Of a DNA stretch of 15,123 bases, positions 3,675 through 6,707 are shown one piece after another (position 1 is the first letter of the stretch; each line of letters opens with the position of its first letter). The DNA is from Nocardioides sp. (GTDB lineage: Bacteria; Actinomycetota; Actinomycetes; Propionibacteriales; Nocardioidaceae). A program made the position numbers and the translations under genes. The notes beneath the pieces were generated by a model. That model searched no databases and had not been told where the DNA came from. It saw only the letters and a program-made list of their open reading frames with translations. Location: NCBI GenBank assembly GCA_021731205.1, contig JAKFXV010000098.1:1-15123 (forward strand), in the 5' to 3' direction.

Positions 3675-4559
3675 TCAGCGCGAGGGGATGGCGAGGTCGC
3701 TGACCAAGGCCTGCATCGCCTCGACCAGGTTGTGGCCCAGCGGGTGGGCAGCGACGTGGACGGCGGCCTGGGCCCCTCCCCCGACATAGACCAGCACCTC
3801 GGGGCAGGTGGCGCGCAGGGCGTTGATCGCGTCGCGGGCCGCGGTGACGTCGGACATCGTCGACACCCCGAGCACGATCGCTGCAGGGTCGGTCTGGCTG
3901 ACGCTCTCGACCCAACTGGGTGTCGGCAGATCCCCGCCGAGATAACGGACGTTGACCCCGGCGCGCCGCAACAACGTCGCGAATGCCAAGACGCCGAGCT
4001 CGTGGCGGCACCCACCGGGCAGGCCGGTCAGCACCAGGGGGCCTTGGGTGACGGGCACGGCTGCGTCATAGACGGCCGACAGCTTGCGCAGCACCCCGGC
4101 GGTCACCATGTGTTCGCCGCCGATGCTGACCCGACCGGCCTGCCACCAACTGCCGAGCTCGGCGAGCGCCGGCATCAACCAGCTGTCGACCAGGTCCTCG
4201 AAGGGAGCCCGGGCGAACTCGCGGTCCAAGGCTTCATCGAGCGCGTGTGGGTCGAGATCGAGCGCCAGCCGCGCCAGCAACGTGATGCCGTCGTGGTCGG
4301 TGTCGACCGGTGTGGTCTCGTCCAACTCCGCGATCGACGCATCCCCCGCCGCTCGCACCTGCTCAGCAGCGGCCCGGGTCGACCAGCCCGCGAGCACGAG
4401 AACCTTCATCGCCCGGAGTAGCCGAACGTCGGCGTCGTCATAGACCCGATAGCCGCCCGGTGTGCGCTTGGGGGAGACGACTCCGTAGCGGCGCTCCCAC
4501 GCGCGGAGCGTCGGCGCGGAGACGCCGGCGAGGCTCGCCGCATGGCTCACGGAGTACAC
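3675..4559 (-). CDS. carH: MerR-family, B12-binding light-responsive repressor (CarH/LitR-like)
   Basis: The protein is about 294 aa. Residues 2-70 are a MerR-type winged helix (SVSHAASLAGVSAPTLRAWERRYG, then RTPGGYRVYDDADVRLLRAM). Next comes the helical B12-cap domain with the CarH signature Wx9EH (W139, E149, H150), then a Rossmann B12-binding domain with GCRHELG, where H186 is the expected lower cobalt ligand. In CarH proteins, adenosylcobalamin drives tetramerisation and DNA binding in the dark, and light cleaves the Co-C bond and releases DNA; targets are often carotenoid genes. None are in this window. The residue after W139 is Gln, not His. Start: GTG 4559 is used. A TTG at 4589 is in frame but lies inside the operator-like repeats, and a GTG at 4550 has CAGG upstream. 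Operator-like arrays just upstream suggest autoregulation. Confidence 0.85.
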   Translation of the reverse strand: MYSVSHAASLAGVSAPTLRAWERRYGVVSPKRTPGGYRVYDDADVRLLRAMKVLVLAGWSTRAAAEQVRAAGDASIAELDETTPVDTDHDGITLLARLALDLDPHALDEALDREFARAPFEDLVDSWLMPALAELGSWWQAGRVSIGGEHMVTAGVLRKLSAVYDAAVPVTQGPLVLTGLPGGCRHELGVLAFATLLRRAGVNVRYLGGDLPTPSWVESVSQTDPAAIVLGVSTMSDVTAARDAINALRATCPEVLVYVGGGAQAAVHVAAHPLGHNLVEAMQALVSDLAIPSR

Positions 4560-4570
4560 CTGCGAAAGGT

Positions 4571-4603
4571 TAGAGCAAACCTTGAACAAACACTAGACAA
4601 CTG
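4571..4603 (+). promoter_or_regulatory. CarH-operator-like array A: three tandem 11-bp repeats
   Basis: TAGAGCAAACC (4571-4581), TTGAACAAACA (4582-4592) and CTAGACAACTG (4593-4603) share a RCAA core at exactly 11-bp steps (4575, 4586, 4597). As I recall, Thermus CarH contacts tandem 11-bp repeats with several of its four DNA-binding domains, so the period matches. The array ends 11 bases upstream of the chosen carH start, in its core promoter. It also has the minus-strand -35-like TTGTCT. Binding is inferred. Confidence 0.6.
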
Positions 4604-4613
4604 CGCTGTTGTC
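4596..4613. repeat. 18-bp inverted repeat between the two operator arrays
   Basis: GACAAC (4596-4601), six bases TGCGCT, GTTGTC (4608-4613). The arms are perfect and the inner GCGC is also symmetric. The left arm is part of repeat A3, and GACAAC recurs in array B at 4653-4658. It could be an oppositely oriented fourth half-site for CarH or a classical MerR-style palindrome. Confidence 0.6.
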
Positions 4614-4627
4614 ATGCACACTCGGGT

Positions 4628-4660
4628 CTAGAACAACCTTGTGCAAACGTTTGACAACAG
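4628..4660 (+). promoter_or_regulatory. CarH-operator-like array B, overlapping a perfect TTGACA
   Basis: CTAGAACAACC (4628-4638), TTGTGCAAACG (4639-4649) and TTTGACAACAG (4650-4660) repeat the RCAA core at 4633, 4643 and 4654, so the steps are 10 and 11. Array B aligns with array A 57 bases away (19 of 24 bases between 4578-4601 and 4635-4658). It contains the perfect palindrome CAAACGTTTG (4644-4653) and a consensus -35 TTGACA (4651-4656) pointing to the plus strand. No matching -10 is visible at 16-19 bp, so a plus-strand promoter is unproven. Confidence 0.55.
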
Positions 4661-4728
4661 CAGAGTCGAGATCGGCAGAGCAAGACTTGTCCCCTTGCCG
4701 AGTCGAGAAGTCAACCGGCTCTCATTGC

Positions 4729-4789
4729 TTTAGGTACTTCTCTGCGGAGACCCGGGCCGGATTCACCACCGGTCCGGGTCACACCTAAA
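4729..4789. ncRNA. Possible structured RNA element: nested three-way hairpin
   Basis: Outer arms TTTAGGT (4729-4735) and ACCTAAA (4783-4789) are exactly complementary. They enclose a small stem TCTC/GAGA (4739-4742 with 4747-4750) and a strong 12-bp stem with one mismatch (4749-4760 with 4769-4780, loop ATTCACCA). The two inner stems share two bases, so they compete or stack. No known riboswitch class is recognised. It could be read on either strand: as part of a plus-strand transcript from the operator region, or as a far-upstream leader of carH. Confidence 0.35.
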
Positions 4790-4812
4790 ACTTCATGGGC
4801 TCACCGATAGTC

Positions 4813-4841
4813 CTGAAACACCAGCAAGTCTGAAACACCAG
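4813..4841 (+). repeat. 12-bp direct repeat CTGAAACACCAG, two copies
   Basis: CTGAAACACCAG occurs at 4813-4824 and again at 4830-4841, a 17-base period, ending right at the left arm of the long palindrome. It may belong to the same small repeat element or mark its insertion border. Confidence 0.7.
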
Positions 4842-4842
4842 G

Positions 4843-4915
4843 AATCACGGTGATCCGGCGCGTAAGTGCAGCTAACCCGCGATGGCACGTACTTACCCGC
4901 CGGATCACCGTGATT
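4843..4915. repeat. REP/MITE-like palindrome with 25-bp arms; terminator-like on the plus strand
   Basis: The left arm (4843-4867, starting AATCACGGTGATCCGGCG) and right arm (4891-4915) are complementary at 24 of 25 positions around a 23-base loop (4868-4890). The plus strand continues as TTTTGTTTT, like an intrinsic terminator, but no gene upstream on that strand needs one. The minus strand, which would end the VWA gene transcript, has no T-run after the stem. The size and arm identity fit a palindromic repeat unit or small non-autonomous element. A genome-wide copy count would decide. Confidence 0.6.
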
Positions 4916-4979
4916 TTGTTTTCCGCCCCAGTGGTGCGGGCCGGTGATCTCGTGAGCGTACCCCCGGACGCCGAATCCG

Positions 4980-6707
4980 TCACGTGTTCGATAGCGCTTC
5001 GCGAAGCATCGTGCCGACCTCGTCCTGGGTGAGCCCTTGGTACGCCGCCCCGCCTGTCACGTCTGCGAACTGCCGCAAGACGTCGAAGTCGACCTCCTCG
5101 CCGTAGGCGAGCGCAATGATCTCGACCGGGCGCATGCCGTCGTACTGCTGGCGTAGGCGGTCGATCACCTCCTCCTCCGCAAGTGGGCCCTGGGTGTCGT
5201 CCGCGTCACGCCCGTCGGTGACCACCACGACGGCGTTGTAGCGCCCGAACGCGTAGTCCGACAAGGCCGCGGAGTACGCCGACAGCAGCGCGCGATACAG
5301 CGGCGTGCCTCCGTCCGGCACCGGACTCAGGCCACCGACGACGACCTCGAGCGTGTCTCGACGGCTGTCCCCGTCTGCCCCTTGCTCCCCCAGGGGACCG
5401 ATCTCGACCACACGGTCGGTCCCGTCGCTGGCCGCCCCCGTGGTGAATGTCCACAGGCCCAAGTCGCTGTCGGGAGCACTCGCAGCGATCAGCTCGCGCA
5501 GGCTCTCGCGGGCCAAGTCGATCTTGGCGACCTCACCACCGGGCAAGGTCTCCGCCATCGAACCCGACAGATCGAGCAACACCAGTAGCCGGGCACGACG
5601 ACCGACCGAACTCCACGTCTTCAGCGTCTCGGCGACCTTGGCCGAACCCACGTCGAGCGGTGCAGTCACCTGATCGGCCAGGACGCCGGACGTCGACCCC
5701 TCGGCGTACGGCTCCGCAAGGGCGCCCGCCACGTCGCGCAACCCGGCCTCCCGAAACCGGCTCTGGGCACTCGGGGAGAGCAGCGCCGTGGTCAGCAGTT
5801 CCAGGTCCGCGGCCACCTGGGCACTGACCGGCTCGCCGTCGGGCGTGATGCCGATCAGCGGAAAGTCAAGGCCGCCACCGAGCGCCGGGTCGTACGACGC
5901 CACAACGTCGCCACCGGCTGCCGCAGTCCGCGCAACGTCGTACTCCGCGGTCGGCATGGCGTCTACGTCACCGGCACCCACAACTCCCGCCGGGCTGCGC
6001 TCACCGGTGGCCGGCAACTCGAGCCGTCGCCCCAACGTGGCGTAGCCCGCGGAGTCGGCGTCCACGGCGAGCAAAGCGGCCAGGCCGCTGGTCGCCACCT
6101 GCGGGTCGGGGACTCCGAGCCGCCACTGGTCGATCGGACTGGACACCAGGTCGGCCCAGGTCAACTGGGCGCCGGGCCAACCGCTCGCCTCGGCCTGCGC
6201 ACGCCGAACCGCGAGCACGATGGGGCTGGTGGCCACCGAATCCGGAGTTCTCACCAGTCGCGCCGCGCCTGCGTCGGTGCGCCGAGCCACGCGCAACCAG
6301 ATCGACGAATCGGGCAGCCAGGCATCGGGCAGCGAGGTGGCGAGCCCGACTCCTGCCGGCCGAGACAGCTCTGCGGCCACCTCGGCCGAGGGACGAGCAT
6401 CGACATCGACGGCCAGGCATCCCTGGGCGCCTGCCAGGTCGCTGAGATCGGCCGTGGCCTCGAGCACGGCGTCCTCGATGGCCGGATCGACGGTCAGCCG
6501 CACGGTGTGCGCGGCGCAGGTGGGACGCGCCTGGGGGTCCGCTGAATCGGCCGAGTCGAGTCTGCTCAGGATGGCCACCGCGCCGGCCACGAGCACCACG
6601 AACGCCAAGAGCGCCCCCAAGACGCGCTTGAGCGCGCCGGGAGGACCCTTGCCCGAATCCACGGCGGCGTGTCGCGAGGCGGCATGCCTCGAGGCCGGGG
6701 GCGCCAT
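4980..6707 (-). CDS. Membrane-anchored substrate-binding-like and VWA-domain protein
   Basis: About 575 aa from the ATG at 6707. The frame stays open to a TTG at 6743, but the added residues have no support. A short polar N-terminus with an SRHAASRHAA repeat precedes one transmembrane helix (about 27-48), placing the rest outside the cell. Residues about 64-330 look like a type 2 periplasmic-binding fold (SBP_bac_11-like): it has the typical order of segments, including PIVLAVRR, WADLV and RLGVPDPQVATSGLAALLA. Cys64 and Cys97 could form a disulfide. Residues about 375-570 are a von Willebrand A domain with a complete MIDAS: D379-L-S381-G-S383, T468 in DGGTPLY, and D498 in VVTDGRD. The MIDAS binds Mg2+ and mediates adhesion or complex assembly. 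Exact role unknown. It is divergent from a polyamine-type binding lipoprotein. Confidence 0.8.
   Translation of the reverse strand: MAPPASRHAASRHAAVDSGKGPPGALKRVLGALLAFVVLVAGAVAILSRLDSADSADPQARPTCAAHTVRLTVDPAIEDAVLEATADLSDLAGAQGCLAVDVDARPSAEVAAELSRPAGVGLATSLPDAWLPDSSIWLRVARRTDAGAARLVRTPDSVATSPIVLAVRRAQAEASGWPGAQLTWADLVSSPIDQWRLGVPDPQVATSGLAALLAVDADSAGYATLGRRLELPATGERSPAGVVGAGDVDAMPTAEYDVARTAAAGGDVVASYDPALGGGLDFPLIGITPDGEPVSAQVAADLELLTTALLSPSAQSRFREAGLRDVAGALAEPYAEGSTSGVLADQVTAPLDVGSAKVAETLKTWSSVGRRARLLVLLDLSGSMAETLPGGEVAKIDLARESLRELIAASAPDSDLGLWTFTTGAASDGTDRVVEIGPLGEQGADGDSRRDTLEVVVGGLSPVPDGGTPLYRALLSAYSAALSDYAFGRYNAVVVVTDGRDADDTQGPLAEEEVIDRLRQQYDGMRPVEIIALAYGEEVDFDVLRQFADVTGGAAYQGLTQDEVGTMLREALSNT

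What the first reader, a model, noticed from the sequence alone, without database searches (positions are those of the whole stretch)
4571..4660. Two arrays of three CarH-operator-like 11-bp repeats
Upstream of the B12-photoreceptor gene there are six short repeats in two clusters, 57-58 bp apart (about 5.5 helical turns). All have an RCAA core, at exact 11-bp steps in array A and 10/11-bp steps in array B. As I recall the Thermus CarH-DNA structure, adjacent DNA-binding domains contact tandem 11-bp repeats. Two arrays suggest two tetramers, looping, or separate control of carH and of something divergent.
Basis: partly seen in the sequence, partly recalled or inferred. Interest (0 to 1): 0.72.

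Follow-up and report, generated by a model that had tools for sequence, protein, structure and literature searches.

The report
Split operator of a vitamin-B12 light-sensor repressor
In front of a bacterium's gene for a probable vitamin-B12-dependent light-sensing repressor lie two short clusters of the DNA repeats that such repressors bind; many related bacteria keep the same two-cluster layout and carry the same repeats in front of an uncharacterised family of small secreted proteins, which suggests the sensor controls more than pigment genes.

Summary
Six RCAA-cored 11-bp units lie on the + strand at 4575/4586/4597 (array A) and 4633/4643/4654 (array B). They are the window's only such triples; 0 of 20,000 shuffles gave two. 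They precede a MerR + B12-binding protein (3675-4559, minus) of CarH/LitR kind. Three of six match the published CarH repeat nnnnTnnACAn. Array A is strong, array B degenerate (20.9 against 10.5 bits).

The layout is conserved. In 86 Nocardioides carH upstream regions a repeat pair occurs on this strand in 42, on the other in 0. Twenty-seven relatives and the window have two arrays 46-49 or 55-58 bp apart.

Best explanation: array A represses carH's own leaderless promoter. Array B is a second CarH site, directly before a small divergent membrane/secreted-protein gene in at least 21 of 27 relatives; here that gene is absent and B is decaying. Looping is untested.

New lead: an uncharacterised ~105-aa secreted family has CarH-type arrays upstream in 10 of 10 Nocardioides genes, seven of them four tandem repeats, found only in carH-bearing genomes; 3 of 6 tested lack detectable phytoene synthase.

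The parts
3675..4559 (-). carH/LitR-like gene (MerR DNA-binding domain + B12-binding domains), GTG start at 4559
   Evidence: Pfam MerR_1 3.4e-15, B12-binding_2 1.2e-07, B12-binding 1.9e-10; PDB 3whp 1.4e-28 and 5c8d (CarH) 1.7e-28 (that both are from Thermus thermophilus is recalled, 5c8d also from a passage of PMC10442372); W-x9-EH and CRHELG motifs; best NCBIfam match is CarH, 122 bits, below its cut-off of 400
4567..4572 (-). TAACCT, putative -10 of a leaderless carH promoter, hexamer starting 13 nt upstream of GTG
   Evidence: a TANNNT hexamer starts 12-16 nt before the first aligned carH codon in 27 of 27 two-array relatives and at 13 here; function inferred
4568..4578 (+). array A unit 1, pseudo-repeat GGTTAGAGCAA (overlaps the putative -10)
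4579..4589 (+). array A unit 2, strict repeat ACCTTGAACAA (TnnACA)
4590..4600 (+). array A unit 3, strict repeat ACACTAGACAA (TnnACA)
4626..4636 (+). array B unit 1, pseudo-repeat GTCTAGAACAA (10-bp step to the next unit)
4636..4646 (+). array B unit 2, pseudo-repeat ACCTTGTGCAA
4647..4657 (+). array B unit 3, strict repeat ACGTTTGACAA (TnnACA)
4658..4979 (+). region where at least 21 of 27 two-array relatives have a small divergent gene; none found here
   Evidence: tblastn of four relatives' proteins, best E 1.2; + strand ORFs that start here reach 60 aa at most; no ATG/GTG ORF of 20 aa or more starts within 190 bp of array B

Best explanation
The two arrays form a split operator for the CarH/LitR-type protein encoded directly downstream. 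By analogy with studied CarH proteins, AdoCbl-bound dark CarH would bind array A, which covers the region between the -10 and the -35 position of carH's own leaderless promoter, and repress carH; light (or lack of AdoCbl) would release it. Array B is a second, separate CarH site. In at least 21 of 27 two-array relatives it lies directly in front of a small divergent membrane/secreted-protein gene, so that A and B together could shut a divergent promoter pair. In this genome the divergent gene is missing from its usual place and B has drifted to one strict repeat, so B is most likely a relic or a weak accessory site. Shown: the repeats, their register, strand, conservation and distance to carH, and their presence upstream of other genes. 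Inferred: binding, repression, light and B12 response, promoter elements.
For: Repeats match the published CarH motif nnnnTnnACAn (PMC9304148, passages; window). 42 of 86 carH upstream regions from Nocardioides (86 of the 91 matches; 4 partial and 1 interrupted dropped) have a TnGACAA pair at 11 bp on the strand opposite carH, 0 of 86 on the same strand, 0.16 of 86 in shuffles. The first array starts 20-25 bp from the first aligned codon in all 28 promoters with two arrays 46-58 bp apart, window included. A family-wide pattern search made without reference to carH hit 34 of 341 genomes; of the 30 loci examined, 19 lie 22-26 bp from a carH start. Separation is 46-49 bp in 25 of 27 relatives, 55 and 58 in two, 57 in the window and 57 in a genome of another family, G627. 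A divergent ORF of 46-106 aa with a Shine-Dalgarno-like motif and a hydrophobic stretch starts 10-31 bp behind array B in 21 of 27 relatives, in the window not. The same motif marks other genes: 10 of 10 genes of a secreted family; 48 sites in 19 chosen carH genomes against 2 for the reversed pattern. G187, with array A only, shows no small secreted reading at that place among its three longest ORFs.
Against: No binding data exist for this protein. Half of the window's units are pseudo-repeats, and array B scores 10.5 bits, array A 20.9, where relatives' arrays (from which the matrix was built) score 19.6 or more. 44 of 86 carH genes have no such pair within 250 bp upstream, so the arrangement is clade-specific. 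6 of 27 relatives failed the small-ORF test (one of them, G269, has a small reading seen); in G297 the nearest long divergent ORF starts 114 bp away, so B is not strictly tied to such a gene. The assembly is 84% complete, so absence of targets elsewhere is not proof.
Confidence: 0.72

Rival explanations
1. DNA looping or a cooperative two-tetramer operator: A and B are bound together by one CarH assembly, and B strengthens carH autorepression even without a divergent gene.
For: The distances fall into two narrow groups, 46-49 and 55-58 bp, about one helical turn apart, with none at 50-54; 57 bp recurs in a different family, G627. B is still recognisable in the window although no divergent gene remains.
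Against: Most of the 46-49 group are close protein relatives of one type (VYTVGRT/YTAGRT starts), so the phasing is not independently sampled; 88 bp (G197) and 42 bp (Janibacter L078, there about 500 bp from carH) also occur; about 57 bp is a stiff length for a loop (general knowledge); G187 does with array A alone.
Confidence: 0.25
2. The repeats bind another MerR-type or unrelated regulator, not the neighbouring CarH.
For: No direct binding evidence; of the tandem first ('a') carH copies only one of 21 (G179a) has a repeat pair of its own.
Against: Match to the published CarH repeat; fixed distance to carH; the secreted-protein family with these arrays was found only in genomes with carH (10 of 10 within 66 of 215, P = 4.5e-6 without correction for relatedness).
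Confidence: 0.08
3. Chance resemblance in an A+T-rich intergenic stretch.
For: The stretch 4560-4740 has 50% G+C against 69% for the window.
Against: 0 of 20,000 shuffles that keep the local composition; P = 0.0002 with a matrix built without the window; conservation.
Confidence: 0.02

Closest known systems
CarH operator of Thermus thermophilus (structures 5c8d-5c8f)
   Same: tandem 11-bp direct repeats nnnnTnnACAn read by MerR-type domains of a B12-binding repressor (PMC9304148, passages); the window protein matches this CarH over nearly its whole length
   Different: one array of three repeats there; here two arrays about 57 bp apart, no carotenoid genes next to them, and Gln instead of His132
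CarH operators of Bacillus megaterium and of Myxococcales (PMC9304148: passages, and section 10)
   Same: mixtures of strict and pseudo-repeats are bound; one site over two divergent promoters is described for Sorangium cellulosum
   Different: in the passages read, each operator is one contiguous run of three to five repeats and the targets are carotenoid genes and carH
LitR of Streptomyces and other actinobacteria
   Same: MerR-B12 regulator of light-induced genes in the same phylum (recalled; papers only seen as a listing)
   Different: the operator layout was not looked up in a LitR paper; here phytoene synthase was not detected in 8 of 16 carH genomes and only below cut-off in one more

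Membership tests
CarH/LitR B12-dependent photoreceptor (protein) | N-terminal MerR DNA-binding domain and C-terminal B12-binding domains | tested here: met
   Pfam MerR_1, B12-binding_2, B12-binding
CarH/LitR B12-dependent photoreceptor (protein) | W-x9-EH motif capping AdoCbl and a lower-ligand His (His177 in Thermus) | tested here: met
   WQAGRVSIGGEH from residue 139 and CRHELG; aligned with Thermus CarH
CarH/LitR B12-dependent photoreceptor (protein) | His132-type upper ligand after light (Thermus) | tested here: not met
   Gln in the window; but the position varies: His in 12 of the 68 family loci in which the motif was found, of 80 examined, so it is not a defining feature of the family
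CarH/LitR B12-dependent photoreceptor (protein) | passes the NCBIfam CarH equivalog cut-off | tested here: not met
   best-scoring model but 122 bits against a cut-off of 400; no exact orthology to named CarH is claimed
CarH/LitR B12-dependent photoreceptor (protein) | AdoCbl-dependent, light-reversible DNA binding | not testable with these tools
   -
CarH-type operator (DNA) | at least two or three tandem 11-bp units, some strict TnnACA | tested here: met
   array A: pseudo-repeat, strict, strict; array B: two pseudo-repeats, one strict, one step of 10 bp
CarH-type operator (DNA) | overlap with promoter elements | tested here: inconclusive
   array A abuts or overlaps a conserved TANNNT; no mapped transcript; the sigma-70 scan found no promoter in 4400-5000
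CarH-type operator (DNA) | conserved in orthologous promoters | tested here: met
   42 of 86 carH upstream regions

The most novel reading that the evidence does not exclude
In Nocardioides and related actinobacteria the B12 photoreceptor CarH is primarily the switch of a small membrane/secreted-protein regulon, not of carotenoids: it autoregulates through a split operator and represses, in the dark, small divergent membrane or secreted proteins and an uncharacterised family of ~105-aa secreted two-cysteine proteins (in some species also fasciclin-domain proteins). Of the six genomes with the ~105-aa family that were tested for phytoene synthase, three lack it and three have it, so carotenoids would be an optional part. 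The window's genome would be a reduced case in which the sensor and its split operator remain while the divergent target is gone.
Probability: 0.5. Interest if true: 0.68.

Novelty: new variant of a known kind. Interest (0 to 1): 0.52.

Why it matters
CarH operators described in the passages read are single contiguous arrays in front of carotenoid genes or carH. A conserved operator split into two arrays at two preferred spacings makes it directly testable whether CarH tetramers act at a distance or independently. The motif also exposes probable new targets, above all a secreted protein family without a Pfam or NCBIfam match, which would extend B12-based light sensing beyond pigment synthesis.

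Tried and rejected
Photolyase as a general target: a repeat pair upstream in 1 of 18 photolyase genes (G325, put in because its photolyase was already seen divergent to carH); none at the own genome's photolyase. Fasciclin-domain genes: pair upstream in 9 of 29 genes examined (of 30 rows; L337, same score as L332, left out) and in 0 of 2 in the own genome; kept as a possible target in some species only. Carotenoid target in the own genome: no phytoene synthase detected. Other strict matches in the own genome (C48, C101, C24) lie inside long reading frames and were taken as chance. A remnant of the divergent gene in the window: none. An RNA element: no Rfam match, no tRNA. A pattern scan marks a terminator-like hairpin on the minus strand at 4613-4596, across array A (1 found, 0.4 expected); I take it as the inverted TTGTC/GACAA letters of the repeats. 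The first locus view had minus-strand matches unturned; it was redone with correct orientation. The predicted structure of the secreted protein (mean pLDDT 81, 72 of 106 residues at 90 or more) had no Foldseek match in the PDB at E <= 10. Literature: searches gave one paper with CarH and Nocardioides (on carbamate pesticides, by its listing), none with CarH and fasciclin, and none whose listing or read passages describe a split CarH operator; the library lacks most subscription papers.

Full report
What is there. The window belongs to a 2.09-Mb, 350-contig, 84% complete assembly. Its genus is Nocardioides by inference: two same-genus genomes have contigs of the same length as named Nocardioides records (N. 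furvisabuli L080, 102,120 bases, and MAG Nocardioides sp. L075, 8,807 bases). The gene at 3675-4559 (minus) encodes a 294-aa MerR-B12 protein. It aligns along nearly its whole length with CarH of known structure and carries W-x9-EH and the His of the CRHELG motif. It does not reach the NCBIfam CarH cut-off (122 of 400 bits), so I call it CarH/LitR-like.

The repeats. On the + strand just upstream are six 11-bp units with RCAA at 4575, 4586, 4597, 4633, 4643 and 4654. The published repeat is nnnnTnnACAn, with 'dr' for pseudo-repeats (PMC9304148, passages). Strict matches are at 4583, 4594 and 4651; another at 4615 is out of register. Two RCAA triples never arose in 20,000 shuffles, and no other triple exists in the window. 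Array A is the only place in the own genome with at most one mismatch to a three-repeat pattern.

Conservation. Of 215 Nocardioides genomes, 66 have a homologue at E <= 1e-40, 91 matches in all; the search scored at most 11 candidates a genome. I took 86 upstream regions, dropping four partial matches and one with an inner stop. A TnGACAA pair at 11 bp occurs on the strand opposite carH in 42 of 86, on the carH strand in 0 of 86, and in 0.16 of 86 after shuffling. Two separate arrays 46-58 bp apart are found in 28, the window included; one further promoter (G197) has arrays 88 bp apart, and one (G198) a single array of three. In the 27 relatives the separation is 46 (4), 47 (12), 48 (4), 49 (5), 55 (1) and 58 (1); the window has 57, and so does G627 of another family. 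The set is related by descent, so the two spacing groups only hint at helical phasing. The closest homologue, G187 (55% identity), has array A only.

Independent check. A pattern for two GACA pairs 37-67 bp apart, run over 341 genomes of the family without reference to carH, gave 35 places in 34 genomes (16 for the reversed pattern). Of the 30 loci examined, 19 lie 22-26 bp from a carH start, one (L155) is 157 bp from another MerR reading, and 10 show none. The window itself does not match that strict pattern.

Promoter anatomy. A TANNNT hexamer starts 12-16 nt before the first aligned carH codon in all 27 relatives; in the window it is TAACCT, 13 nt before GTG. This fits a leaderless transcript, which is inference; a simple sigma-70 scan found no promoter. 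In 22 of 27 relatives another TANNNT on the opposite strand stands 23-24 bp from the start of array A, which fits a divergent promoter with its -35 in array A; it is absent from the window. In 21 of 27 relatives a divergent ORF of 46-106 aa, with a Shine-Dalgarno-like motif and a hydrophobic stretch, starts 10-31 bp behind array B (the six others failed that test). The window has no such ORF and no remnant, and its array B is weak (10.5 bits). Hence my reading: A is the autoregulatory site, B the site of a lost neighbour, or a weak helper.

Other targets in relatives. The pattern TnGACAAnnnnTnGACA has 48 places in 19 genomes, chosen because they have carH, against 2 for its reverse; many of the 48 are the carH operators themselves. 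One lies next to a polyprenyl synthetase reading, crtE-like (L293); others near fasciclin genes. One target class stands out: a ~105-aa secreted family. Ten of 215 Nocardioides genomes have it, all ten among the 66 with carH (P = 4.5e-6, ignoring relatedness), and ten of ten have a repeat pair upstream in sense orientation. Seven are four tandem units, about 3-4 kb from the nearest carH copy (coordinates); three are divergent to carH. In a class-wide sample of 393 genomes 3 had the family, one of them outside Nocardioides: G627, with the gene divergent to carH and two arrays. Knoellia flava (L079) has it close to carH with an array upstream. A database search gave 492 relatives at E <= 1e-5; the 120 listed bear no Pfam domain, and the names visible are of the hypothetical or uncharacterised kind, from Nocardioides, Knoellia, Lapillicoccus and Jatrophihabitans. 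Pfam gave no match for two shortened members, NCBIfam none for a full one. The predicted structure has a confident mature domain, with Cys37 and Cys106 invariant in 30 sequences, and no PDB fold match.

Results against. 44 of 86 carH genes lack the array. The own genome shows no second operator, no secreted-family gene, no phytoene synthase, and no array at its photolyase or its two fasciclin genes; with 84% completeness this is weak evidence of absence. Photolyase is not a general target (1 of 18). Phytoene synthase is present over cut-off in 7 of 16 carH genomes, and in 3 of the 6 tested genomes that have the secreted family (G253, G017, G321 with; G024, G177, G194 without), so a carotenoid role is not excluded. 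Gln replaces Thermus His132, which a paper (PMC10442372, passages) finds important for light-driven tetramer disassembly in Thermus. The position is not conserved, however: His in 12 of the 68 loci where the motif was found among 80 examined, and Glu in a Priestia relative. Light response of this protein is therefore likely but unproven.

Verdict. The finding is genuine and its reading as a CarH-type operator is well supported by conservation. The split layout is a conserved variant not recognised in the papers I could search. The more interesting consequence is the apparent regulon outside carotenoid synthesis.

Noticed in passing
window 4843-4915: A 25-nt inverted repeat (96% complementary) with a T-rich stretch after it on the + strand, preceded by two copies of CTGAAACACCAG at 4813 and 4830; a terminator of the 4980-6743 gene or a small mobile element.
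   Followed up: no
L347-L357 (Nocardioides and G627), L079 (Knoellia flava) near 5164: Uncharacterised ~105-aa secreted two-cysteine protein family with CarH-type repeat arrays upstream; 7 of 10 Nocardioides members have four tandem 11-bp units.
   Followed up: partly
behind array B in 18 of the 27 relatives, e.g. L035, L036, L037, L242, L248: A second group of small proteins, 72-84 aa with one hydrophobic stretch and two cysteines near the C-terminus (often STDxxCRxDIVGxxWxSSGC), divergent to carH; one member tested in Pfam, without match.
   Followed up: partly
L036, L038, L041 (G007, G019, G017) and other Nocardioides: Two carH copies in tandem on one strand, about 370-410 bp apart in these three and up to about 1.2 kb in others; the second copy has the two-array operator, and of 21 first copies only G179a has a repeat pair.
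   Followed up: partly
window 4140-4145 (Trp139-Gln140 of the carH protein): The residue after Trp in W-x9-EH (His132 in Thermus CarH) is Gln here; across 68 family loci with the motif it is Ala, Glu, His, Tyr, Gln and others.
   Followed up: yes
L279, L287, L289, L280, L284: CarH-type repeat pairs near fasciclin-domain protein genes in several Nocardioides (9 of 29 genes examined); an algal fasciclin protein, AstaP, binds carotenoids (start of the abstract of PMC10147662 in a listing).
   Followed up: partly
L088 (Intrasporangium MAG) and L215/L364 (G325): A photolyase reading divergent to carH with repeat arrays between them.
   Followed up: partly
window 4596-4613: A terminator-like hairpin on the minus strand across array A (6 pairs), one found against 0.4 expected.
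   Followed up: no
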